Notes under the pieces: generated by a model
Databases searched by the model: none
Seen by the model: the letters and a program-made list of their open reading frames with translations, nothing else
What the model was told of the DNA's origin: nothing
Source: Polytrichum commune
Taxonomy: Eukaryota > Streptophyta > Polytrichopsida > Polytrichales > Polytrichaceae
Length of the DNA: 64,000 nt
Assembly: GCA_950295325.1 (NCBI GenBank)
Contig: OX485803.1
Span: forward strand, 20,584,001 to 20,648,000
Reading direction: 5' to 3'
Part shown: positions 2,751 to 64,000 of the stretch, piece after piece
Layout of the letters: every line of letters begins with the position of its first letter
Numbering within the stretch: position 1 is the first letter of the stretch
Made by a program: the position numbers and the translations under genes

Positions 2751-2862
2751 ATGTTGGTGCCGTAGTGTTCGGTGTTATACATGCAAAATGTTGCTATCAT
2801 AGTGTTCGGTGCTATGCAACATGTTGCTATGGTAGTAGTTGGTGTTAGTGTTCGGTGTTATG
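2751..2862 (+). repeat. Degenerate short tandem repeat
   Basis: Three to four imperfect units contain TGTTGCTAT followed by TAGTGTTCGGTG and TTAT or CTAT, with variable spacing of about 25-45 bp. This is a local, decayed tandem repeat with no coding evidence. Confidence 0.5.
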
Positions 2863-5120
2863 GTCCATGGTAGACGACTTAGTCTACTTTATAGTCGAGT
2901 TGGATGGGCACTTGCAATGCCACCGAACACCCATTTGCACCCTTTTATAGCACTTCCCTTTTTAAATTGATTCTCAAATTCTGACTTGTACCCCACACGC
3001 AGCTTTACAAAGACACTTATTAGAGGAGCTCAATCCCTTGACTAAATCCAAACTTAGCCACATGTGGAGTTGCAAATACTTTTTCAAAGTGTAGCTACTA
3101 CCAAAACCATCAACAACAACAATAATACTAAAAAAAACCAACTCAAGCGACGTCTTGGAAACCCCTACGACATGAGTGATTAGGAATTTAGGATGGCTTC
3201 CAATGCTCACTTTTGTGGGTGGGTTGGTTTTAACCCTAATGTTCCAAATGGGTGTTTTTGTTCAAACAATAAGTTTTAGAAGGGTGGATGTGGATGCGGA
3301 TGCAAATGAAATCATTTATCATTCAAAATGTTTTGTGACCACCATAGGATCATGCATATTAAGTAACTGGTGTGTAGAATGAATCAAAACCTTCAAGAGA
3401 GTTATCTCTCCTAGTCACAAACCTGCTCAAAAATTTGCATGCAACCGATGAACATTGTTTCCCAGTTGAATGCCATGAAAACACAATTTTGGGAGAAAAA
3501 AGAAGGTTTTCATGTTCAACTTTGACCCCTCCAAAAACAAAATTTATTCTTTAGCATCTATAGAAGATATTCATGCAATCTATACAAAATTAATACATGG
3601 CTTGGACTCTATAATGGCCCAAAATGATTTTATATTAATCTAATGTTCGTAATTTACAAGAAATGCATGTCAAATTATAACCGAACAAAACTTAACACAT
3701 AGACATCAAATCATGTAACTCAAAGAACTTACATTAGTATCGATTTTCAATCAAGTAATATTTCTTTCTTTATCATTATAACATGATCAATCTAAAATCT
3801 CGTATTTTGGTGCAGTATAATCAATATGTGCTTAGAATATCTAAATGGGTTCAACCCAAAGGTGCATAACATTATTCACATGATGTGCTATGTTCAGTTG
3901 CCCTAACTTCAAATTCAGTTTGGAAGGCACTCACATTCCAGCATACAGGTTCTTTCCTCTCGAATCTACTTCTGGGCCCATGAACACAGCTCATCAACGG
4001 AGTAAATGTTATGTATATAATTTTCATTTATAGATTATTTTCGTGACTTTAAGCTCAAGAAAGACTGCATGTGGTTCACCTAGTTATCTGAGGACACCAA
4101 CCATATGGATGTGATCTTCAAATCGATATCAAACAAGTTTGCATCACAAAGTTATTACCTTCTCGCCTTGCAACTATTCTATTGTGTGTGTTAATAATGA
4201 CTATGTGAACAAAGCTCGAGCCTTTCAAGTTTAACCCTTGGATGCCTACGGAATCTAAACCTAGACTTATGAAAATATCCAGTTCACAAACCCCCATTAG
4301 GTTTGGGTGAGCTATAGGAGGGAGGGTGCACCGGAAATCAAGTACTAGGAGGGTCACCCATTGGAGCACTATTATGGCCTTTAGTGGCTTAACCTCGGAG
4401 TTCCCATGGGATCCGGGTCAAGGCCTTGGGTTTAAGTCACCTTGCAAACGTGTATGCATCGGCCCAAAACAACACCCGGATGATCATGGAAGGCAACAAA
4501 GTGCTAGAATTCAATAAAAGTTTGACCTTTTTTTTTTTGAAATACACTCAAGACAATTGTGATGATGAGGGGCACAAAAAATTGACACATCAACACAAAT
4601 GTTTATATATATATAATTTTACTTTTGTTTTTGGTAAATTACTATCACCGTCATTTGCTCACGTGAGTAGGTAAGCCTTGTTTAGGATGGGAGGGGCCCA
4701 AAGGGAGGCCAAGCATGCAACTTGGCCGTGGTAAGATGGGACGGGGAGCTTGAGAGAAAGCCTACAAGATGATACTATTGCTTAACATAAGATTAGAAAC
4801 GTTTGAGATCATAAGACCATATGATCTTTGAGGCGACCTTTTCATAACTCTTTATGGTGCTTGTGAGATGTTCTAGAGACCCATTTGTCTCCTTGGTGTA
4901 ATTTCCGTACTTTGTAGAAGCGCTATGAGCACTGTGTATTCAGTAACGTTTTTGTTCATCACCTCAAACCCCCCCATATTTGGTGACTCCATATGAGAAT
5001 CATGAAGAATATTATCAATTTGAAAACACTATCATGACACACCCCTTGTGGTGCATCCACATTTGTAAATTCAATGTGGAGAGGCTCAATTTGATATGTA
5101 AAATAAATTGCTTGATACAC
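2863..5120. other. No gene seen; one orphan MITE end
   Basis: The only recognisable landmark is the motif CATAACATTATTCA near 3865, which matches the left end of the CATAACATT MITE family but has no clear right end. A G+C-richer stretch near 4330-4520 contains GGGTTTAAGTCACC, loosely like a pol III B box. It lacks a convincing A box, so I do not call a SINE there. Confidence 0.4.
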
Positions 5121-11654: not shown

Positions 11655-12785
11655 CAGGCCATAAATTTGACACCCTAGCCAAATTTCCAGGGGACACCCT
11701 GTCCCAAATTTTGGGTGTCCCAAGGACACCCTGCTCCAATTTTTGGGTGTCCTCATAAATTTCTCTTAAATTTTTTTTTTTGTCAAAATAGGTACAATTT
11801 TGAAAAATATAGAATATCATTTCAAAATTTCAATTAAAAATCAAAAAAATCACTACATATCATAACTTGCAATGCAAATCAAACCTACAAGCGGCGGCCT
11901 TTCATAGCACACCACTTTACCCATACTTGTTCAAAGTCAATGGCCTCTATGGGGATTTTTGCCATTGCAACTCTCATTTGTGCTTCCAAAGTCTCTAATA
12001 CCAAACTACACCGTAAAGTAGATTTAATATGATTTTGAGTAGAAAATCCTCTCTCACAAGAAGCTGTACTAGCAGGAATTACAAGAACAGCTTGCCACAA
12101 CTTTGTCATATGAGGATATCTTCCAACATAGTCCAAATTGGAAGAATAAACCATCCAAGCTTGGTGCATTTTAAAACCACCACATGAAATATGAAGTGTA
12201 TCCAAAAAACCTCGAAGCTCTGATTTTAAACCACGCTCATAAAAAAGATTCCCTCCATTAGTGCAGAAGTGGTCAATGAAACTCTGAAGCCATAAACGAG
12301 CATTTCGATGAAGAAGTGTCAAGTCTGTTGAAAAACAGACAGGGCTAAATAGCTTAGCTGCATTGAAGAGCTTCAAATCAGGAAATCGTTGCTGCAATGA
12401 TTCTATCACCTTAACCACATAGGCCTGTGCAATCACCTTGCACCCATGGAGGGTACCATCACCACCAAACTCACCAAACGTGTGATTTTTTTCTTCACAA
12501 GTCACAGTACGTGTCAATTTCTAGAATGTGCGTGTCAATTGACGTGCATTTTTTTTGGTGCAAGTTTTTGCGTGTCAAAAAAGAAAAACTTTTAAAAACT
12601 TTGTCAAACATATACGCTGATAGGCTCTACAAGTACAGGGGACACCCTGAATTTTTTTTGGGTGTAAAAAGGACACCCTTGTAGGATTTTTGATTGTCCT
12701 CGGGGACACCCTGTTTGAGATTTGGGTGTCCTAGGACACTCTAGGAAGCAAAATACACCCCCCAGGGTGTCAATTTTATGCCCTG
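11655..12785 (-). mobile_element. hAT transposon, deletion derivative with perfect TSD
   Basis: The ends CAGGCCATAAATTTGACACC and CAGGGCATAAAATTGACACC (right end inverted) form a TIR of about 22 bp with two mismatches, beginning CAGG as hAT elements do. The element is flanked on both sides by the identical octamer CAAGCATG. Both subterminal zones carry clusters of GGACACCC/GGGTGTCC in both orientations, the usual arrangement of hAT transposase-binding repeats. The length is 1131 bp, against several kb for an autonomous hAT element. Only the 3' end of the transposase gene remains, so the element would depend on an enzyme made elsewhere. The perfect duplication suggests a recent insertion. Confidence 0.92.
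11885..12517 (-). pseudogene. hAT transposase, C-terminal fragment (dimerisation domain)
   Basis: The open stretch of 210 codons ends in a natural stop but begins just after a stop at a TTG with no ATG, so it is a 5'-deleted exon. Residues about 133-187 carry the hAT C-terminal dimerisation signature: YPHMTKLWQAVLVIPASTA, then the diagnostic CERGFS at 154-159 followed by NHIKSTLR. This resembles plant zinc-finger MYM/hAT-like transposases. The BED zinc finger and most of the RNase H-like catalytic core, with its acidic residues, are absent, so the product cannot catalyse transposition. In complete hAT proteins this domain mediates dimer formation. The fragment lies centrally in a hAT element oriented the same way. 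The frame is otherwise intact, so decay after the deletion has been slight. Confidence 0.85.
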
Positions 12786-31808: not shown

Positions 31809-33598
31809 TCAATTTTGGTTTTGGGCATTGCAAGATACAAAATGATTCCCGTGGAACTCAACTAGAGTGGGACTAGAGTAAAGTTTTTTGCATTGAATAG
31901 GTACATGTTCAAAAGATATGCCCAATATCAATTTCCATAAATTATTATCAAATTGATTGCACCTCATCATTTTTTGAACTACCCCAAAAGAACTCCATTG
32001 TTGCTCAAAGTAATTGAGCCACCACATATCTATTTCCCAAGTGGTATTAAATGGATGGATCAAATAATATCCCTATGTGAGAAACCTTGGGTGGGGGTGG
32101 GGGGGGGTGCAATGGGGAGTTAGGATACCTCTTTCTCAAAGTTCATACAACCTTTTTTTCTTCTTTCTCTGAAGTGGAATAATACTCATCCCATATGTAT
32201 ATACTCTAAGCCAAACTCTCATTAAACACCCTTTTATATACCCACGTGGTGCCAAGTACCCTTTGAGAGGGGTTTTCCTCTACACGTCCATGCCGTTCAC
32301 ATGTTAATATAGGTCATAGAACCCTCCTTGAAAAGGGCGGCAATAGTATCATGCGAGCAAATACACTTTTGGTTTATGTTTTTTTTTTCGGTGATCTATA
32401 TTCTCTTATGAACCACCAAAAGTGATTTAATATTGAAGAATCCAACACATGGTCCAATAAGCATATAAATTTTGTGTGCGAGGCAGTGTGTGCCATGCAA
32501 GCTTCATAAAGGATTCTCTCAAAAGGCACACCAACACTTCTGCATCATATTTATGCGTATTAGGTTGATGATGTGTCTTGGGGGAAGCAAGTTGAAGCTC
32601 GGGACAACAAACATGAACATAAAACATGCATTTTTTTTTTAAAGTTTATGAAAAAATCAAGTTCACAGGTGAAACATCTCTAAGGCAAATTCATTTCCTA
32701 TTGGTCAAGAAGGATGTATAGTTGTGGCATACAAAATCTAGTTTCTTATCTACATTCTACAAAGTACATCGTATCTAAATTTCTATAGTAGTATGATTGT
32801 GCTATGTTCTTTGGAAAGTCCAATAATGCTCAAAGTTTTTTTACCAGTGCTAGGATAAGATTTATGTAAAAGGATATGTAAAAGGTGAAAGTTTGTTAGA
32901 AAAAGTTGTGCGTAGGTGAAAGGGAATTTAATATAAAAGTCCTCACAAGGATACATCCATGGATTGCAATTCTTGCCATGTTACTTTGACACTCAACTTG
33001 TGATGAGTCTAAGGACTATTATCATGTGAGCATTGAGCGGTAACACATGAGCAATGAGATAGGAAATATTTGGAAATACAATCACTAGTATTCTACATTC
33101 ATGGTATTTTAGCATTAAAACACATTTTTTTAATGAATAACCCTCAACAAAACCCAGAAATTGCGAAGTGATTGATGAATGCCGCCATTTAGACTCAGTT
33201 AAGGCATAGCGCTTTATCTGCAACGCTAGCTTCCTAAGGATCTCACAAGGCTTCAAACCTGAACCTTCACAAACATTATGACACCCACCAACCAACTTAC
33301 TCAGCCCCAAGGTGACCAAAACCACATGATCATGGCCTTTATGTCAAACTAATGTGAATGTGGAGTTTCAACATATTGCAATTGTCCGAGTGCATGCCTA
33401 ACCACACTTTAAAATCCAACAACTGGAAGTGGCACAAGGGTTTGGAATAAAGTATAGGGAATGATGTATGAGCCAACATAGAATATGATCACACGCCAAG
33501 TATTGATAATGTTGTACAAAATGTCCCAAAATGTTGAGGAGTAATGAAACAATTGCAAGTCCAACTCTACTAATCCAAGTCCACATCTCAATCCACAA
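31809..33598 (-). pseudogene. Possible decayed coding fragments, unidentified
   Basis: Several minus-strand frames in a row have protein-like composition rather than random codons: WEIDMWWLNYFEQQWSSFG near 32000, DAEVLVCLLRESFMKLAWHT near 32540, GLKPCEILRKLALQIKRYAL near 33240 and SSTFWDILYNIINTWRV near 33520. They are in different frames with stops between. I recognise no domain. They lie just downstream of, and on the same strand as, the large decayed gene at 33.8-38.1 kb and could be its further remains, or separate debris, or chance. Confidence 0.22.
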
Positions 33599-33767
33599 AT
33601 TGGGGTATTATGAATTTAAATTTGAAATCCATAATTCAGACATTTTCACACCTCCAATACAAGACATCCAATCCAATCACATCATATCCAATCAAACATG
33701 TAGTGGAAGGTATTGACAACTATCTAAATTTAACTACACTACATCATTCCAGTTATCAACATACGGA

Positions 33768-33896
33768 TTATGAGCAATTCGTGTAGAAAAATGGCAAACA
33801 AGTGGCAACATAGTTTGTGACACTAGCTGAGCAGCACTCTCTGCATAGGGAGGCAACATCTTCAAGCTTGAAGAAGAACTCATGCATTCCCTCTTT
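33768..33896 (-). pseudogene. Last exon of the decayed gene
   Basis: The acceptor TGTTTTGCAG is followed by an open frame reading EGMHEFFFKLEDVASLCREC, then CSASVTNYVATCLPFF, and a natural TAA after NCS. It has no internal stop and is well preserved. Confidence 0.5.
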
Positions 33897-33991
33897 CTGC
33901 AAAACAAGCATGAATGTTAGAGATCAAGTATACAAATATAAGGCATTTGAGTTCTAGATGAGCAAAAAGTAAGAACAAAATGCAAACTTAC

Positions 33992-34164
33992 ATACTCAAA
34001 CGATTTTTCCGAGCAACCTCCTTACATGTTCTTCATCAGTTACTACATAGATGCTTTCTGGTTGTGGCCCACCTACATTAAGAGTAGTCATTGTATCATG
34101 TACTGGAGGTACAATGGCATTAACCAAGGCTAAGTATTCCTCATACACAACTAGATGGCGACAA
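33992..34164 (-). pseudogene. Penultimate exon of the decayed gene
   Basis: The exon lies between an acceptor-like AAATGCAG and a strong donor GTAAGT. The frame reads HLVVYEEYLALVNAIVPPVH, then TTLNVGGPQPESIYVVTDEE and HVRRLLGKIV, with a single stop one codon before the donor. Confidence 0.5.
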
Positions 34165-34249
34165 CTGCATTTGCATGCATAGATAGACGCACATGGCAAT
34201 GAAACATTAAGAAATCAAATATTTACTACGAGTCAATAAAATATCCTAT

Positions 34250-34520
34250 ATAATTATCATAGGGCCTGGAAATCTCAAAAGGTAACTAATTTTGTAGACG
34301 CATGAGCATCGAGGATAACCAAAACGGGAGTTGTTAAAGCCTCAATCAAAATCTACATTGAATCAAAGTCCTTCTCTCTACCACCTCTTCATGGCATTTT
34401 TCCTTTCATGAGTTGCATACTTGCAGACATGATATTGAAGTATATGTCCAATACCGCACATCCACCACAACTTTGTACCTTTCTTTTGAAAATTAGATTA
34501 TGATTTTGGATTTGAGCAAA
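34250..34520 (-). pseudogene. Exon of the decayed gene, with stop and frame slip
   Basis: The frame KKGTKLWWMCGIGHILQYHV continues to ATHERKNAMKRW, meets a TAG, slips frame and resumes as ILIEALTTPVLVILDAHAST. The tryptophan/cysteine-rich start and VLVILDAHAS are not recognised as a named domain. Confidence 0.45.
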
Positions 34521-34559
34521 TAAACAACATGATGTGAAAACCGCAAGTTCGTGAATCAT

Positions 34560-35008
34560 AAACAAATGTTAAGGGGGTGAAGAATGAATTCAATAAAACA
34601 TAAAATGCAATGCATAGGGATAGGATAAAGCATATATTGTCTATAGAGTTTCCTATGTACCATCAAATATGTGTCCAATAGAGAACACAATGGCAACTCG
34701 TTGAAACCCCACCAGTCCTTCCACAACACAAAATCATAGAATGCCGCAAATGTCCTCACATCATCCTACACATCCTTCTTCTCATGAACAAATAGAAGCA
34801 GATGGCCATCATCAGAGAGGTAGGCAAAAGTAGATTCAAAGAGGGCCTCAATGTTCTTACTTTTGTGTAAGTTCCAAGAAGGGATGTTAGTAGGAAGAGA
34901 GGACACATTGGGCGTAGGAAGACCCTTTGGTAAAGCAATAATGATTAGATCAAACCCTCCAAACAAACAAGCCTTCGAAGACACCTTCCTCTTTTGTGCG
35001 AAGTTCAC
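34560..35008 (-). pseudogene. Methyltransferase-like exon of the decayed gene
   Basis: It begins at an acceptor TTCTTAG. Within one frame it reads KACLFGGFDLIIIALPKG, then NIEALFESTFAYLSDDGHLL and FVHEKKDV, meets one in-frame TAG, and continues DDVRTFAAFYDFVLWKDWWG and FNELPLCSLLD. The order of a hydrophobic strand ending in a proline-containing loop (FDLIIIxxPxG), then a helix and an L-S-D-D-G-H-L-L-L-F strand is that of the second half of a class I SAM-dependent methyltransferase. The expected catalytic D/N-P-P-Y/W would here be replaced by A-L-P-K. The function is inferred from motif spacing only. Confidence 0.45.
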
Positions 35009-35109
35009 CTAAGAACACAAAATTAGAGCAATGATTAAACATAATAACAATACATTTGGCATGTAGTGGAAATACTAAAATATAGAAGAAAACTCTCAAA
35101 AAGCATAAT

Positions 35110-35800
35110 GATTTACCTTCTATACAATATTGATTATTTTTATCATTAGTAAGTTCTCATCCGCATCGTTATCCATTATTGTTGGTATTGACATCTTCTC
35201 CAACAAGACTGAACAAAGTTTTCCATAAAGTGAAGCATTACGAACAATAACTTTCAACAATTGTTGAGACCACAAAGTACACAAAGTGGGGGAGGCATGA
35301 ATACCCTATGTAAAGATGGCCTACGACTGGGAATTGAAGGACTAGGACCAAGTGCAGCTAGACTAGACTTGGGTGCAACAACAATAACTTGAAAGGCACC
35401 CTCTATGGTCTTTGATCCACGTTTCCGTTTACCTTTCCCCTATGATTATAACTCTTTATTTGCCACCTCATCTTTACCATCTATGATATCAACATCATCT
35501 AAAAGTAACTTTATTGGACATGTCTACTTCTTCATCTCCTCTTATTCAACTATATGAAATGTAAGAGACAATCTAGAAACCACAAACATTCTTTCAAAGT
35601 TGGCAAATTCCAAATTTTTAGTTCAGTGCTGAGAAAAAGCAAAGAGCATAAGACCTATCCATCCATGACACAAAACTAGTTGGAAAGGTGCTAAAGGATA
35701 TTGTGTTAGAAACCAATAGCTTGTGAATGAAGTACCTATCGAATAGAAACAAACCATTTAAACTAGGGTAGATCCAACTTGGGATAACATTGGATATGTG
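35110..35800 (-). pseudogene. Linker exons of the decayed gene
   Basis: Three readable stretches lie in shifting frames: NVIPSWIYPSLNGLFLFDRY with FPTSFVSWMDRSYALCFFSA; PIKLLLDDVDIIDGKDEVAN with a basic GKGKRKRGSKTIEG, IVVAPKSSLAALGPSPSIPS and RRPSLHRVFMPPP; and SQQLLKVIVRNASLYGKLCS with LLEKMSIPTIMDNDADENLL. The serine/proline/arginine-rich stretch looks like a disordered linker. At least two stops and one slip interrupt it. Confidence 0.4.
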
Positions 35801-35843
35801 ATTGAAGACAAATATGAGAAAGAAAGGAAAAACATAAGGTTAC

Positions 35844-36160
35844 CTATAAATAAACCATTTTATAGCAATGCATCCACCATAGACTTTACCAAGGGAGTAG
35901 ATTTTGTGAATGCACTCTACCCACTAGAAAAATGTTGAAAAACCTTCATCCCCAATAAAATACGTCATTTCCCAACGTAAACATAAGATTTTAAGATGGG
36001 AACATCCCAATTGATCTTCTCCTTCATGTGAGCGCCACAAGGATACGAACATGAATTCAATGAGAGTTTACATTCTTGTGTTCTACAATAATATAAGTAT
36101 AGGCCGCAACAAAGAGAGCACACAACCATTGAGGAAACTCCTAATCTCACTCATGTATTT
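35844..36160 (-). pseudogene. Exon of the decayed gene
   Basis: EMTYFIGDEGFSTFF, stop, WVECIHKIYSLGKVYGGCIA and IKWFIYR end exactly at a donor GTAACC. The IKWFIYR ending after a KI..LGKVYG strand recalls the central strands of BAH domains, but this is only a hint. Confidence 0.4.
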
Positions 36161-36317
36161 TCCATGCTCTAAATTTTTTTCACACAACCATCCTCAAACT
36201 ATATAACACAACATATGTACCATAAAAATCTTGACAACAAATAAAAGCATTAGAAACAAATACTAAAGAACAAAAGGACAAAAGACTACATGTGCTCAAA
36301 AAGACATTTTGATTAAT

Positions 36318-36503
36318 TATTTCTCCAACTCTTTCTTTTTGTCATCCCCAATGGAAATCATAGTGATGCTCCGGACATTTCAATTGAATTCCATCACCCC
36401 AATCATTCTAACTTGAATATGGTTTCAACCAGTGTGGTGGTTACCATTTGTAATTTTTCTAGTGTCAGTCAAGATTTGAACAAACTCCAAAATGTTGGTT
36501 AAT
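36318..36503 (-). pseudogene. Exon of the decayed gene
   Basis: After the acceptor TTTTATTGTAG it reads LTNILEFVQILTDTRKITNG, then two in-frame stops within QVRMIGVMEFN, and SITMISIGDDKKKELEK before TAA. Confidence 0.4.
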
Positions 36504-36590
36504 CTACAATAAAATTAGATATCAAAAATGAAGAAAATAAAATAAGTGAACACATTGACCAACATAACCCATAAACTCACCTCATTCAAA

Positions 36591-36779
36591 AATTCCACAA
36601 CATTTGTAGAATTAGTGACTACTGGATTTTTTTTTTTACTCCTTTCCACAAATGGACACATTGTTCTCTTAGTGGCATCTTGCATGGCATCTCATATTCC
36701 CTTTGCCATCCTTGATTGAGAAGGATTTTTTTTCATTGTATTTAAGAGTTGTTTCTTTAGTGACAAGGGTTATTTTACG
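36591..36779 (-). pseudogene. Exon of the decayed gene
   Basis: It lies between the acceptor TTTTTGTGTAG and the donor GTGAGT. RKITLVTKETTLKYNEKKSF is followed by a one-base slip and then DAMQDATKRTMCPFVERSKK and VVTNSTNVVEFLNE. An A11 run near the middle may reflect slippage. Confidence 0.45.
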
Positions 36780-37215
36780 CTACACAAAAAATAAGAACTA
36801 GATGAGTCCCAAATCATCAATATAAGTCAACTAGTAGATAATACTAGGAGACACAAAACAACACTTAGTTTGTAAATAAATTTCTTGAAGACCTCCAATG
36901 TGAGAGTATACGGAGTAGTTTTTTACCCTTCTTAAAAAAATATACATATTATTATTGGCAAGCAGGGATTTTAATTCCTACATCTGCATGATTTCAAAGC
37001 TTCTCACCCGATGCAATTTATGAACCTTATTCATTTTAGCATTGTCACTTTCGATTGATATGAGGAAGACAAAAATGAAGCATACAAGAGGCACTCAAAA
37101 ATTGATTGAAAAGAGAATCATTGTAATGAATTGAAAATGAAGAACTACACATGTTCACATTATGTGTAGCATTCAAAAGAATATCCATTGAACCTACTCA
37201 TTCAAGAATTATGCA

Positions 37216-37490
37216 ATCAACCTAGTAATGTCATGTTGCATCTTGATGATAAAAGCCTATCAATATACCGGTGCTAAATTGTAACATGATAGTTGCCCTC
37301 ACAAATGTAAAATATCTTCCTAAAAAATCTATTATAGTCCTTATCACTTTTAAGCATTGCCTCAAATGATTCATTGGACAACTACCAATGCTCATCCCAA
37401 GAGTTGGCCCCAATAATAATCATAGTGCTTTCATCATTGTTAAAATGAGTCACATACAACATCCTATCACCCTCGGTATAACTTGTATTG
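37216..37490 (-). pseudogene. Upstream exon of the decayed gene, ParB-like segment
   Basis: The block reads GDRMLYVTHFNNDESTMIII, GANSWDEHW, a stop, then SNESFEAMLKSDKDYNRFFR and KIFYICEGNYHVTI, a stop, and HRYIDRLLSSRCNM. EGNYHVTI could be a mutated form of the ParB/sulfiredoxin-type signature G-x-H-R-x-x-A (here G-N-Y-H-V-T-I), which would sit where a DNA-binding or nuclease-like domain begins. This is an inference from one short motif. Confidence 0.4.
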
Positions 37491-37513
37491 TGGGAATTCT
37501 ATAATGAAAAGTT

Positions 37514-37915
37514 GCACTAAATGTAATATTTAGTGTCATATGGTATTGAACGTCATTATTATAACTTTTTAGATGACACTTCTTATGGATAAGTTTACAA
37601 ATATTGTCATGGATGATGGAAGAGTTCATCCGTTGGCCAAAACCCTACCTTTTCTTGTCAACAACTTGTGAAGGAGTATTGTCATGGATGATTGAAATTT
37701 TGCTGAAAAAAATTTCTTGGCAATTGACAGTAATTGTAACACTGTAAATCTAGAATCCCCCCCCCCCCCCCAACCCCGAAAAAAAAAATTTATAAGGAAT
37801 GACAAATAATGTTGGGTTAACATTTAGTGTTGGTGACTCTATACCACAGTTTACAATTCGTATCGAGCAAGACAATTAGAATTGGTGACACTAAGTATCA
37901 TATGTAGTGTAGTTC
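37514..37915. mobile_element. MITE, family M (CACTACACTAAA), copy 1
   Basis: It shares its whole length with 54.7-55.08 kb and 47.28-47.68 kb: GATGACACTTCTTATG, TTCATCCGTTGGCC, TTGTCAACAACTTGTGA, TCATGGATGATTGAAATTTG, AAGGAATGACAAATAATGTT, GAGCAAGACAATTAGAATT. The ends are inverted (GCACTAAATGTAATATTTAG and its approximate inverse). A C15 run at 37757-37771 lies inside. It separates two blocks of the decayed gene, so it probably lies in a former intron. Confidence 0.65.
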
Positions 37916-37939
37916 AGCAACATTTTTATCTTACCCATG

Positions 37940-38065
37940 ACCACTTTAGAGACATGACACAATCAATATCGACATTAAACTTTGCCTTTCATTTGCAAAT
38001 GATCCCTGTAGAATTTGCTAGTGATGTTGTCCACCCACACAACATTGAACAACGAAAGAGCTCCC
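37940..38065 (-). pseudogene. Most 5' block of the decayed gene
   Basis: FNVVWVDNITSKFYRDHLQM followed by KGK, a frame slip and VDIDCVMSLKWSW runs into a donor-like GTAAGA. It lies immediately next to the left end of a TIR element at 38.08 kb; no block further upstream is recognised. Confidence 0.3.
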
Positions 38066-38075
38066 CCCTACAACA

Positions 38076-38715
38076 CTACCGTAGCACCATAGTTGGTTCG
38101 TGCACCTCGAAACAAATATTATTATTTTTTGAAAAATAAGGTTCGTCAACTAAAAATATAACTTATGAAATTTTGTTAGTCCTATGGTTTTAAAAAATTC
38201 AATTTAGTTTTTTGGGTAAGGTCCAGTAGTACTAGAAGTAGGTTGTTGTTTTTTTCATTCATTCATGGCGGCTTCTTGGCCTTAAATTTAAGTATCCACC
38301 TTAACCTTACTTAGTGTGGCTCTTTTTTGTCTTTGCACAGTGTATGTGTTAGGTCTTTTGTATGTATTTACACTTTGACATGTGTGAGAAGAGTGTTAGA
38401 AATGGCACCAAAACAACGACGGGTTGTATTTTTCTTTTATCCCTATTAGCAAGGAGGAGAGGGAGATGGATATAGAAAGAGAGTTTGCCGCTTTGAGTGA
38501 GCAGGGCGCCAAGCCATTACCACGTTAGCATGCAACCTCTTATGGCGCGTTGACATGGTTGAAGCTTAGAAGAGTCCAAAATTTTTATTAATTAGTTTTT
38601 TTTTCCTAATATATTTTTTCACTTATTCGTTTGATTGGGTTCATAATTTCCGTTTTTTTTCTACTTTTAAATTCGGGAATTATTTTTGCACGAACCATCT
38701 ATGGTGCTACGGTAG
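38076..38715. mobile_element. Putative TIR element, 29-bp inverted ends
   Basis: CTACCGTAGCACCATAGTTG ... at the left and its near-perfect inverse (29 bp, one mismatch) at the right enclose about 580 bp of A+T-rich DNA. No clear target duplication was found, so the superfamily is undecided. A plus-strand frame starting near the right end (38631-38903) has a proline/serine-rich stretch but no domain. Confidence 0.5.
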
Positions 38716-47278: not shown

Positions 47279-47680
47279 CACTACACTAAAATATTGTACT
47301 TCGTGTCCGATGGTATTTTATGTCACTATGGTAACTTTTCCAATGACACTTCTTATGAAAAGGTTTACAAGTGTGGTCATGAAGGATTAAAATTTGGATG
47401 AAATCCATGCCAGTTAATGAACACAAAGTCTGGTTTACATTACACCCTTACATTCTTGTAATGAAATATTATCATGGATGATTAAATTCTGGATGGAAAA
47501 AAACTCACTTGGTGAGTCACAATATATGCAACATCATAAATCTATAAAACCCAGCTTCTTTTACAAGAAATGGCAGAGAATGTTAAATTTACAATTACTA
47601 TTGGTGACATTACACAAGTGGCTCAAATTCATTATTGAGCAAGACGAATAGAAATTAATGACACTTACTTAAATAAAAAA
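47279..47680. mobile_element. MITE, family M, copy 2
   Basis: It begins CACTACACTAAAATATTG, then CAATGACACTTCTTATGA, TATCATGGATGATTAAATTC and TTATTGAGCAAGACGAATAG; the right end has degraded. A CATAACATT MITE follows 18 bp further on. Confidence 0.6.
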
Positions 47681-54049: not shown

Positions 54050-54691
54050 CTCCCCCTTAAGTTCGCACTCTAAACCAAAGTCATTGGTGCGCACTTAGTT
54101 GGTAGGCGCGTACTTTACTCATATTGCTTTCTAAACCCTCTGATTTGATGAACCACAACGGGAAACGGATGAAACATGAGGCAACCCGCTTGACCGAAGC
54201 CCAACGATGTGAAATCATTTCAAAGTTGAGCAAGCCGAACACGCCGAGCAGGCGGGCGCTGGGGCCAGAGTATGAAGTCAGGGAAGGCGCCATCCAGAAA
54301 GTTTGGGACAATCGGGAGAACATATTGCAACGAATCATTTGTTGCAAGAACCCTATCAAGACATTTATTGAATCTGAAAGTGCTACTGACTTCAAAGGCT
54401 TTGAAGCTCGACACAACATTGTCCTCGACATCGACGACCAATTGCTTTGCTCTGATGTTGAAACATAAGTTGCCAAACATGTGAATGATGAACCGCAACG
54501 ATCATTTGAGACGTTTTAGTGAAAAGTTAACAAATTGGCATTGAATGTCAAGCATAAAAAAATTCATGCATTCGCCAAAAATGACTCTACATGACATGTT
54601 CAAACAATAAAGTGTCAACCCTGATTTTTATCTAAAAAAATGCGCACTTAACCGGGATGCGTACTTCAACAAGTGCGTACTTAAGTGGGAG
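54050..54691 (+). mobile_element. pogo/Tigger-like DNA transposon, deletion derivative
   Basis: The TIRs CTCCCCCTTAAGTTCGCACT and CTCCCACTTAAGTACGCACT (right inverted) match at 18 of 20 positions. GCGCACTTA/GCGTACTT motifs recur just inside both ends. The flanking dinucleotide is AT on both sides rather than the canonical TA of Tc1/mariner elements, so the exact boundary or the duplication may have drifted. Inside is the N-terminus of a pogo-type transposase; the DDE catalytic part is gone. A family M MITE begins within a few bases of the right end. Confidence 0.75.
54124..54468 (+). pseudogene. pogo/CENP-B-type transposase, N-terminal HTH fragment
   Basis: An open frame of 114 codons; the first ATG is at 54148. 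From that ATG, the residues TRLTEAQRCEIISKLSKPN through RRALGPEYEVREGAIQKVWD and NRENILQR form a psq/CENP-B N-terminal helix-turn-helix, the domain by which pogo/Tigger transposases bind their TIRs. The acidic tail that follows (FIESESATDFKGFEARHN) no longer resembles the second HTH, and the frame ends far short of the usual 400-500 residues, so no catalytic DDE domain is made. The minus-strand frame over the same bases is a shadow. The fragment lies in a TIR element in sense orientation. Confidence 0.7.
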
Positions 54692-54694
54692 ATT

Positions 54695-55077
54695 CATGTA
54701 TGATATTTGGTGGCATAGGGTATTTTATATGACTATGGTGACTTTTTGGATGACACTTCTTATGAATGAGTGGACGAGTATTGTCATGGATGGTGGATGA
54801 GTTCATCCGTTGGCCGAAACCTAACCTTCTCTTGTCAACAACTTGTGATGAAATATTGGTCGTGGATGATTGAAATTTGGATGAAAAAATCCACTTGGTA
54901 AGTGACAGTAGTTGCAACATTGTAAACCTATCATCCCCCCAAACAATAAACAAGGAATGACAAATAATGTTAGGTTCACATTTCGTGTCGGTGACACTAT
55001 ACCACGGTTTGCAATTGGTATTGAGCAAGACAACTAGAATTTGTGACACTAAATGTCATATTCAATGTAGTGTAGTG
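54695..55077. mobile_element. MITE, family M, copy 3
   Basis: It shares GATGACACTTCTTATGAATG, AGTTCATCCGTTGGCCGAA, TTGTCAACAACTTGTGATG and TGAGCAAGACAACTAGAATT with the 37.5-kb copy, and ends CAATGTAGTGTAGTG. The left end has been lost or overlaps the neighbouring pogo-like element. Confidence 0.65.
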
Positions 55078-63110: not shown

Positions 63111-63310
63111 GATTGAAAACCGTCATTTTGAGTGTTGAGTGTTGTCACCAAAAAGCCTCCATCCTTCAATTTCGTCCTAGCCCGAATGGAGAAGTTTATA
63201 ATGACATGTAGAGATTTCTCTCTTTGTAACACAATGTATGATTCCAATCTATCGTTGGAATCTACGCAACTTAGCCAAGTCTATACTATGTCTTCTTACA
63301 CTCCTTAATC

Positions 63311-63762
63311 TCGAAGTTTGGAAGTTTGGAAGTTTGGACATAGTCTCGGTTTTTTGGCTCTCAAAAATTCATATGAAGTCCAAAAAATGAGTTCTTGGTA
63401 TCCATGGATAGGTAATGAAGTCCTCTACATGAATATGCAATAATATTTCTACTGTATATAATCGCAATTCTACGCTGTTCCATTTGAACCTACACTTTTT
63501 CACTAGTTTTTGGAAGTTTGGACATAGTCTCGGTTTTTTGGCTCTCAAAAATTCATATGAAGTCCAAAAAATGAGTTCTTGGTATCCATGGATAGGTAAT
63601 GAAGTCCTCTACATAAATATGCAATAATATTTCTACTGCCACAAAGTATATGGTCGCAATTCTACGCTGTTCCCTTTGAACCTACATTTTTTCACTAGTT
63701 TTTGGAAGTTTGGACATAGTCTCAGTTTTTTGGCTCTCAAAAATTCATATGAAGTCCAACAA
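63311..63762 (+). repeat. Tandem array, 2.3 units of 184-192 bp
   Basis: TTTGGACATAGTCTCGG recurs at 63333, 63517 and 63709 (last with an A). The units are nearly identical through ATTCATATGAAGTCCAA, AATGAAGTCCTCTACAT, TACGCTGTTCC and TTTTTCACTAG; the second has 8 extra bases. A 9-bp GAAGTTTGG triplet precedes the first unit. Unit length is in the range of many plant satellites. Confidence 0.9.
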
Positions 63763-64000
63763 AACTAAATGCTCCAATAAGAGACTTTGCACATCCGCAT
63801 AAGTATAAGGCTAATCAATGTAAATCCAAGTATTCAAACAAAGCCATAAATTGAACTTTAAATCATTCACGCCCAACTATTACTAACAAGAGGTCAAGCC
63901 CTCTTCAAGGCCAACTAGCCTTGGCTCCTAACCTTACATCCATGCACACACACGTGCTCCTATCTTGCTTCCCACGCACCCACACTTATAACACGTGGAG
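63763..64000. other. No gene seen
   Basis: Ordinary A+T-rich DNA to the window edge. Confidence 0.4.

What the first reader, a model, noticed from the sequence alone, without database searches (positions are those of the whole stretch)
33768..38065. Decayed spliced gene with possible ParB-like and DNA-methyltransferase-like parts
Nine or more protein-like blocks lie in order on one strand with consistent splice borders, but are broken by stops and frame slips. The pair FDLIIIALPKG and LSDDGHLLLFV has the order and spacing of motif IV and the next strand of adenine-type methyltransferases, with the DPP lost, and EGNYHVT upstream is reminiscent of a ParB-type GxHR motif. A gene of that make-up would be unusual in a plant and could be a domesticated or mobile nuclear family.
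Basis: partly seen in the sequence, partly recalled or inferred. Interest (0 to 1): 0.8.

Follow-up and report, generated by a model that had tools for sequence, protein, structure and literature searches.

The report
Decayed transposon gene with methyltransferase domain
The broken gene is a dead copy of a large mobile DNA family that carries a bacterial-type DNA-methyltransferase domain whose usual active-site motif is altered in every copy looked at.

Summary
On the minus strand, window 33,736-37,504 is a decayed multi-exon gene (stops, frame slips, low CpG). It belongs to a large dispersed family in the same 408-Mb genome: 150 places scored of 994 candidates for one exon, 150 of 1,285 for another.

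The family is a DNA transposon: inverted-repeat ends, and 9 of 11 end pairs have exact 9-12-bp target duplications (mismatched pairs: none above 6 bp in 110). It looks Mutator-like, but no transposase model matches.

Methyltransferase half: confirmed through relatives. Pfam N6_N4_Mtase matches 6 of 7 aligned members (best E 3.8e-8); the profile aligns with phage ParB-methyltransferases (E 7.7e-12); motif order is permuted. The missing DPP is not decay of this copy: 0 of 32 family sequences have [DNS]PP[YFW]; 17 read DLPE.

ParB half: not confirmed.

Closest precedent: ParB-like plus N4/N6-methyltransferase accessory genes in algal transposons (PMC12477816). The host was not identified; the search meant to test for a land plant did not complete. 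New variant of a known kind.

The parts
33010..33130 (-). decayed 3' terminal region of the transposon (CTCACATGATA at 33020-33030); exact end uncertain
   Evidence: DNA similarity to the family's 3' ends; exact CTCACATGATA
33736..33898 (-). last conserved block (K)
   Evidence: tblastn to relatives
33999..34190 (-). methyltransferase exon J, motif II (CRHLVVYEE)
34293..34505 (-). methyltransferase exon H/I, motifs X and I (RGGREK...ILDAHAST), two stops in frame
34661..35008 (-). methyltransferase exon G, motif IV region (FDLIIIALPKG, LSDDGHLLLFV), one stop in frame
35123..35523 (-). linker blocks F and E, with a basic stretch GKGKRKRGSK
   Evidence: tblastn to relatives
35526..35737 (-). linker exon matching L043 4781-5434
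   Evidence: tblastn
36281..37067 (-). blocks D, C, B, B0 between the N-terminal exon and the linker
   Evidence: tblastn for B0, B (several relatives), C (L032, L039), D (L039); DNA colinearity
37131..37504 (-). N-terminal exon (A1, A2) with EGNYHVT where relatives have EGNHRVT; stops and a frame slip
37515..37913 (.). small dispersed repeat next to the N-terminal exon; further copies at 47284-47665 and 54696-55071
38076..38715 (.). neighbouring repeat bounded by 29-bp inverted repeats (97% complementary)

Best explanation
The stretch is a decayed, 5'-truncated copy of a large DNA transposon, namely of its second, accessory gene. Shown: the family has conserved inverted-repeat ends, 9-12-bp target duplications and many dispersed copies; the gene encodes an N-terminal domain with a GNHR motif and a C-terminal permuted amino-methyltransferase domain with a family-wide altered motif IV; some copies carry long open frames on the opposite strand that are the transposase candidate. 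Inferred: the element is Mutator-like; the protein works in the nucleus on the element's own DNA, the N-terminal domain making the DNA contact and the methyltransferase fold binding S-adenosylmethionine and/or DNA; because DPP[YFW] is replaced by D-L-P-E, it more likely serves as a binding factor that keeps the element accessible or shields it from silencing than as an active methylase. This window copy makes no such protein.
For: Copies: 150 scored of 994 candidates and 150 of 1,285. Ends: 38 exact 21-mers against 0 in the backward control; 97 at the other end with up to one mismatch against 0. Target duplications in 9 of 11. Methyltransferase homology. Altered motif: 0 of 32 canonical. Constraint on exon G: dN/dS 0.16-0.38 in the unsaturated comparisons between subfamilies. 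Opposite-strand frames. Decay of this copy: stops, CpG observed/expected 0.32 against 0.61-0.80 in 8 relatives.
Against: No Pfam transposase model matches the opposite-strand frames (SWIM at E 0.21 only; nothing for the 550-aa frame; PDB sequences nothing). ParB identity is unsupported. Two of 11 end pairs show no duplication and none was found for the window copy. Within the main subfamilies dN/dS is 0.75 and 1.37, A versus B 0.63, so constraint is not visible among young copies. Binding, expression and any action on silencing are inference only.
Confidence: 0.7

Rival explanations
1. The accessory protein is an active N6-adenine or N4-cytosine DNA methyltransferase with a divergent catalytic motif, marking the transposon's own DNA, as suggested for the algal elements.
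For: The fold family is that of DpnA and CcrM; D and P of motif IV are kept in many copies (17 of 32 read DLPE); L042 and L044 keep AGTG in motif I; PMC12477816 suggests this role for the algal proteins.
Against: 0 of 32 sequences have [DNS]PP[YFW]; the aromatic residue is replaced.
Confidence: 0.2
2. A host gene family or host gene fragment captured and spread by the transposon (Pack-MULE-like), without a role for the transposon.
For: Four copies with opposite-strand frames lack block A1 (L027, L030, L035, L036), so the N-terminal half is dispensable for their spread; many copies decay freely.
Against: The gene recurs in divergent subfamilies that share the terminal sequence, and exon G is under constraint between them. 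No host copy outside transposons was sought systematically.
Confidence: 0.1
3. Chance open frames without a gene.
For: The window copy alone gives no usable Pfam or PHROGs match.
Against: Relatives with the same blocks, 0 hits in 20 shuffled windows, third-position excess.
Confidence: 0.01

Closest known systems
ParB-like plus N4/N6-methyltransferase accessory gene of Sola1-1_Ec32 in Ectocarpus, and similar genes of green and red algal transposons (PMC12477816, section 5 read)
   Same: A transposon accessory gene on the strand opposite the transposase (here: candidate), with an N4/N6-type methyltransferase domain and an upstream domain described there as ParB-like.
   Different: Here 9-12-bp target duplications and other ends; motif IV altered; ParB identity not confirmed. 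The algal sequences were not at hand, so homology is untested.
Phage ParB-methyltransferase fusion proteins (L002 in the same assembly, Desulfofustis, Microcystis and Wolbachia phages)
   Same: Permuted methyltransferase domain aligned over 195 columns, E 7.7e-12, at the C-terminal end.
   Different: L002 has DPPY and FAGSG; the family does not have DPPY. The N-terminal halves do not align.
Adenine methyltransferases DpnA and CcrM (PDB 5hfj, 6pbd)
   Same: Profile matches 2.4e-7 and 2e-4.
   Different: Multi-exon transposon gene, extra N-terminal domain, altered motif IV.
Mutator-like elements with an accessory gene (maize MuDR; recalled)
   Same: About 9-bp target duplications, inverted-repeat ends, a transposase candidate plus an accessory gene.
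   Different: No transposase model match; the known Mutator accessory proteins are not methyltransferase-like (recalled).

Membership tests
Permuted amino-methyltransferases (PF01555 N6_N4_Mtase) | HMM match | tested here: met
   6 of 7 aligned members at E<=1, best 3.8e-8; the one member shown scores 22.1 bits, under the 26.7 cut-off. The window copy in an earlier joining gave no match.
Permuted amino-methyltransferases (PF01555 N6_N4_Mtase) | motif order IV, then X-I-II | tested here: met
   alignments
Permuted amino-methyltransferases (PF01555 N6_N4_Mtase) | catalytic motif [DNS]PP[YFW] | tested here: not met
   0 of 32 sequences, 29 places
ParB/Srx domain (PF02195) | HMM or profile match | tested here: not met
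   the only PF02195 hits of the genome are on C12 and C23
ParB/Srx domain (PF02195) | G-x-[HR]-R motif | tested here: inconclusive
   GNHR in 3 of 6 relatives of alignment A2, ENHR, DNHR and GNHK in the others; a four-residue motif is no proof
Mutator-like transposons | target duplications of about 9 bp and inverted-repeat ends | tested here: met
   9 of 11 pairs, 9-12 bp; ends
Mutator-like transposons | MULE transposase | tested here: not met
   no Pfam match for the 550-aa frame, SWIM at E 0.21 for one piece; the frames are partly decayed, so this is weak evidence against
Algal ParB-methyltransferase transposon accessory proteins | sequence homology to the Ectocarpus protein | not testable with these tools
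   the sequence is not in a collection offered here; only the description was read

The most novel reading that the evidence does not exclude
A transposon family of possibly more than a thousand copies has kept, under purifying selection, a methyltransferase-fold protein whose catalytic motif became D-[LI]-P-E-[GN]-L-P-V-P: a transposon-encoded pseudo-methyltransferase that reads or shields DNA (possibly the element's own 360-bp tandem repeats, which in L031 lie between an upstream basic open frame and the first conserved exon) instead of methylating it, as a counter-silencing factor.
Probability: 0.25. Interest if true: 0.75.

Novelty: new variant of a known kind. Interest (0 to 1): 0.52.

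Why it matters
Transposons that carry bacterial-type DNA-modifying proteins could mark or protect their own DNA. PMC12477816 describes such genes for algae; in the listings of nine searches I saw none described for another host, but the library lacks most subscription journals. This family offers many copies with open exons, a catalytic motif altered in all sequences looked at although the exon evolved under constraint, and subfamilies with near-identical copies. The question whether such proteins methylate DNA or only bind it becomes directly testable. For the window, a gene that no family model recognised could be placed only through relatives in its own genome.

Tried and rejected
Direct family searches of the window copy, as three read-through frames and as joined pieces, gave nothing usable (DUF5864 at E 0.093 only), and PDB sequences one match at E 0.55. 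In viral contigs the window exon gave one 25-residue match, L001, which I judge spurious (its frames); with the family profile none of 40 patterned stretches was confirmed, and in prokaryote genomes none of 65. In phage records the window exon found nothing; the L042 domain found 482 records at E<=10, and of the 20 listed 19 are annotated as methylases or methyltransferases and one as hypothetical. The ParB reading was tested four ways without support. The transposase candidate was sought in Pfam and PDB sequences without a usable match. A first dN/dS script failed and used a wrong frame for L043; one search replaces it. No target duplication of the window copy was found. Structure prediction was not used: the tool admits the window's own proteins and loci of certain tools only, and the informative proteins came from whole-genome stretches. 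Considered and set aside: a domesticated single gene (many dispersed copies), chance.
Full report
What is in the window. The minus strand from 37,504 down to 33,736 gives a series of protein-like blocks interrupted by stops and frame slips. No Pfam or PHROGs family matches the window copy itself, as read-through frames or joined pieces, apart from DUF5864 at E 0.093. The window is C1:20584001-20648000 of a 407.8-Mb assembly in 64 contigs.

Relatives. Block G (34769-35008, 80 aa) finds 150 scored places of 994 candidates in the same genome, one being the window itself; the next 19 rows are 60-72% identical, E down to 3.9e-28, and by my hand count 104 of the 150 rows list no stop inside the match. 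I fetched 20 ten-kb stretches. At E<=0.01 block G was found in 20 of 20, I in 16, J in 15, A1 in 13. DNA comparison shows colinearity of the window with L026 over 33,664-36,027 and 36,281-37,482; L039 is rearranged. Exons of L043 and L042 hit the window only inside the finding and in order, and gave 0 hits in 20 shuffled windows.

It was a gene. In exon G (110 codons) the window differs from 12 copies of the two main subfamilies at codon positions 1/2/3 by 212/258/551, dN/dS 0.16. Unsaturated comparisons between subfamilies give 0.17, 0.19, 0.20 and 0.38; saturated ones allow only pN/pS, 0.40-0.45. The close pair L040-L041 gives 0.47, A versus B 0.63, within A 0.75, within B 1.37. So the exon evolved under constraint along long branches, while recent copies drift. 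The window copy looks old: CpG observed/expected 0.32 against 0.61-0.80 in 8 relatives.

It is a transposon. Most of the relatives looked at share a 3' terminal sequence like GCTCACATGATAGCACTCCCC, divergent subfamilies included; L034, L040, L042 and the window copy showed no match with up to three mismatches. The exact 21-mer occurs at 38 places of the genome, its backward control at 0. The other end, GGGAAGCTAGCATGTGAGCG, occurs at 97 places with up to one mismatch, control 0. I paired the ends of 11 elements, nine from short flanks and two from ten-kb loci (L027, L036). In 9 of 11 an exact word of 9-12 bp is shared by the two flanks at the ends; 110 mismatched flank pairs share none longer than 6 bp. 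The two without are C3:17.05M and C5:1.23M. In the window only the decayed 3' end near 33,010-33,030 is recognisable; no 5' end or duplication was found.

Element layout. In L029 with its upstream neighbour L045, open frames of 550 and 279 aa lie on the opposite strand upstream of the gene; similar opposite-strand frames lie in L027, L030, L035 and L036, four copies in which block A1 was not found, so they appear internally deleted. By eye the frames read like a DDE transposase with a SWIM finger (recalled); Pfam gives SWIM at E 0.21 for one piece and nothing for the 550-aa frame. In L031 a tandem array of 360-bp period at 1448-2646 lies between a basic open frame at 529-999 and the frame with the N-terminal exon at 2799-3494.

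The methyltransferase domain. Alignment A1, six relatives and the window, shows in order a motif IV region ending L-P-[VT]-P, then R-G-x-[RK]-E-K, a motif I region and a motif II glutamate. Pfam N6_N4_Mtase matches 6 of 7 members, best 3.8e-8; the answer does not say which member failed, and the one shown scores 22.1 bits, below the 26.7 cut-off. The profile finds DpnA (2.4e-7) and CcrM (2e-4) among PDB sequences. hhalign gives E 1.9e-5 with the single protein of L002 and E 7.7e-12 over 195 columns with four phage ParB-methyltransferases, aligning D-L-P-E-G with D-P-P-Y-G. Of 32 exon sequences (29 places; three are held under two locus ids) 0 carry [DNS]PP[YFW] and 17 read DLPE; the window reads ALPK. 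The absence of DPP is therefore a family trait, further changed in the window.

The N-terminal domain. In alignment A2 the window's EGNYHVT stands against EGNHRVT in L043 and L026; the other relatives read DGNHR, DENHR, DGNHK and KDNHR. No ParB model or profile matches: Pfam on seven members, PDB profile, hhalign against L002, and against nine ParB sequences, where the score 14.4 over 13 columns compares with 7.8-14.3 in 20 column shuffles. The ParB label rests on a four-residue motif and on the domain pair described for an algal transposon. The exon is abundant: 150 scored places of 1,285 candidates, many with open frames of 192-193 aa and several with identical scores, which suggests recent spread. 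One such copy, L071, has the same exon order but a stop in exon G; its ends were not found with the pattern used.

Comparison with what is known. PMC12477816 (section 5 read in full; [quoted passage not shown] The present family resembles that in layout; ends, duplications and motif IV differ or could not be compared, and homology to the algal proteins could not be tested. Of PMC9477723 and PMC10853773 I saw passages only; other papers only as listings.

Mechanism. Shown: transposon family, gene, methyltransferase homology, altered motif, constraint on one exon, decay of this copy. Inferred: the protein serves the element, more likely by binding than by catalysis. Not shown: expression, DNA binding, any methylation, ParB identity, Mutator membership, host.

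Noticed in passing
window 11888-12517 (-): A 210-aa open frame with the hAT dimerisation region PF05699, E 2.7e-8: a fragment of a hAT transposase.
   Followed up: partly
window 54124-54465 (+): A 114-aa open frame with a weak CENP-B_N match, E 0.011, under the cut-off: perhaps a pogo-like transposase fragment.
   Followed up: partly
window 37515-37913, 47284-47665, 54696-55071; also L028:9669-9993: A small dispersed repeat in at least three places of the window and one relative's flank.
   Followed up: partly
window 38076-38715: A stretch bounded by 29-bp inverted repeats, 97% complementary; no clear target duplication by eye.
   Followed up: no
L002:1468-2796 (G000:C12, 61,220-bp contig): A 443-aa fused ParB plus permuted methyltransferase with DPPY and FAGSG; likely a phage or bacterial contig in the assembly (my judgement).
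   Followed up: partly
L003:1495-3248 (G000:C23, 20,227-bp contig): Two ParB-like genes in tandem beside a frame that reads by eye like a serine recombinase.
   Followed up: no
L032:7238-9142: A 635-aa open frame that begins inside the transposon's 3' end and runs beyond it; by eye hAT-like, not searched.
   Followed up: no
window 63142-64000: 96.5% identical over 867 positions to L044:4024-4890, a stretch inside a family copy on another chromosome.
   Followed up: no
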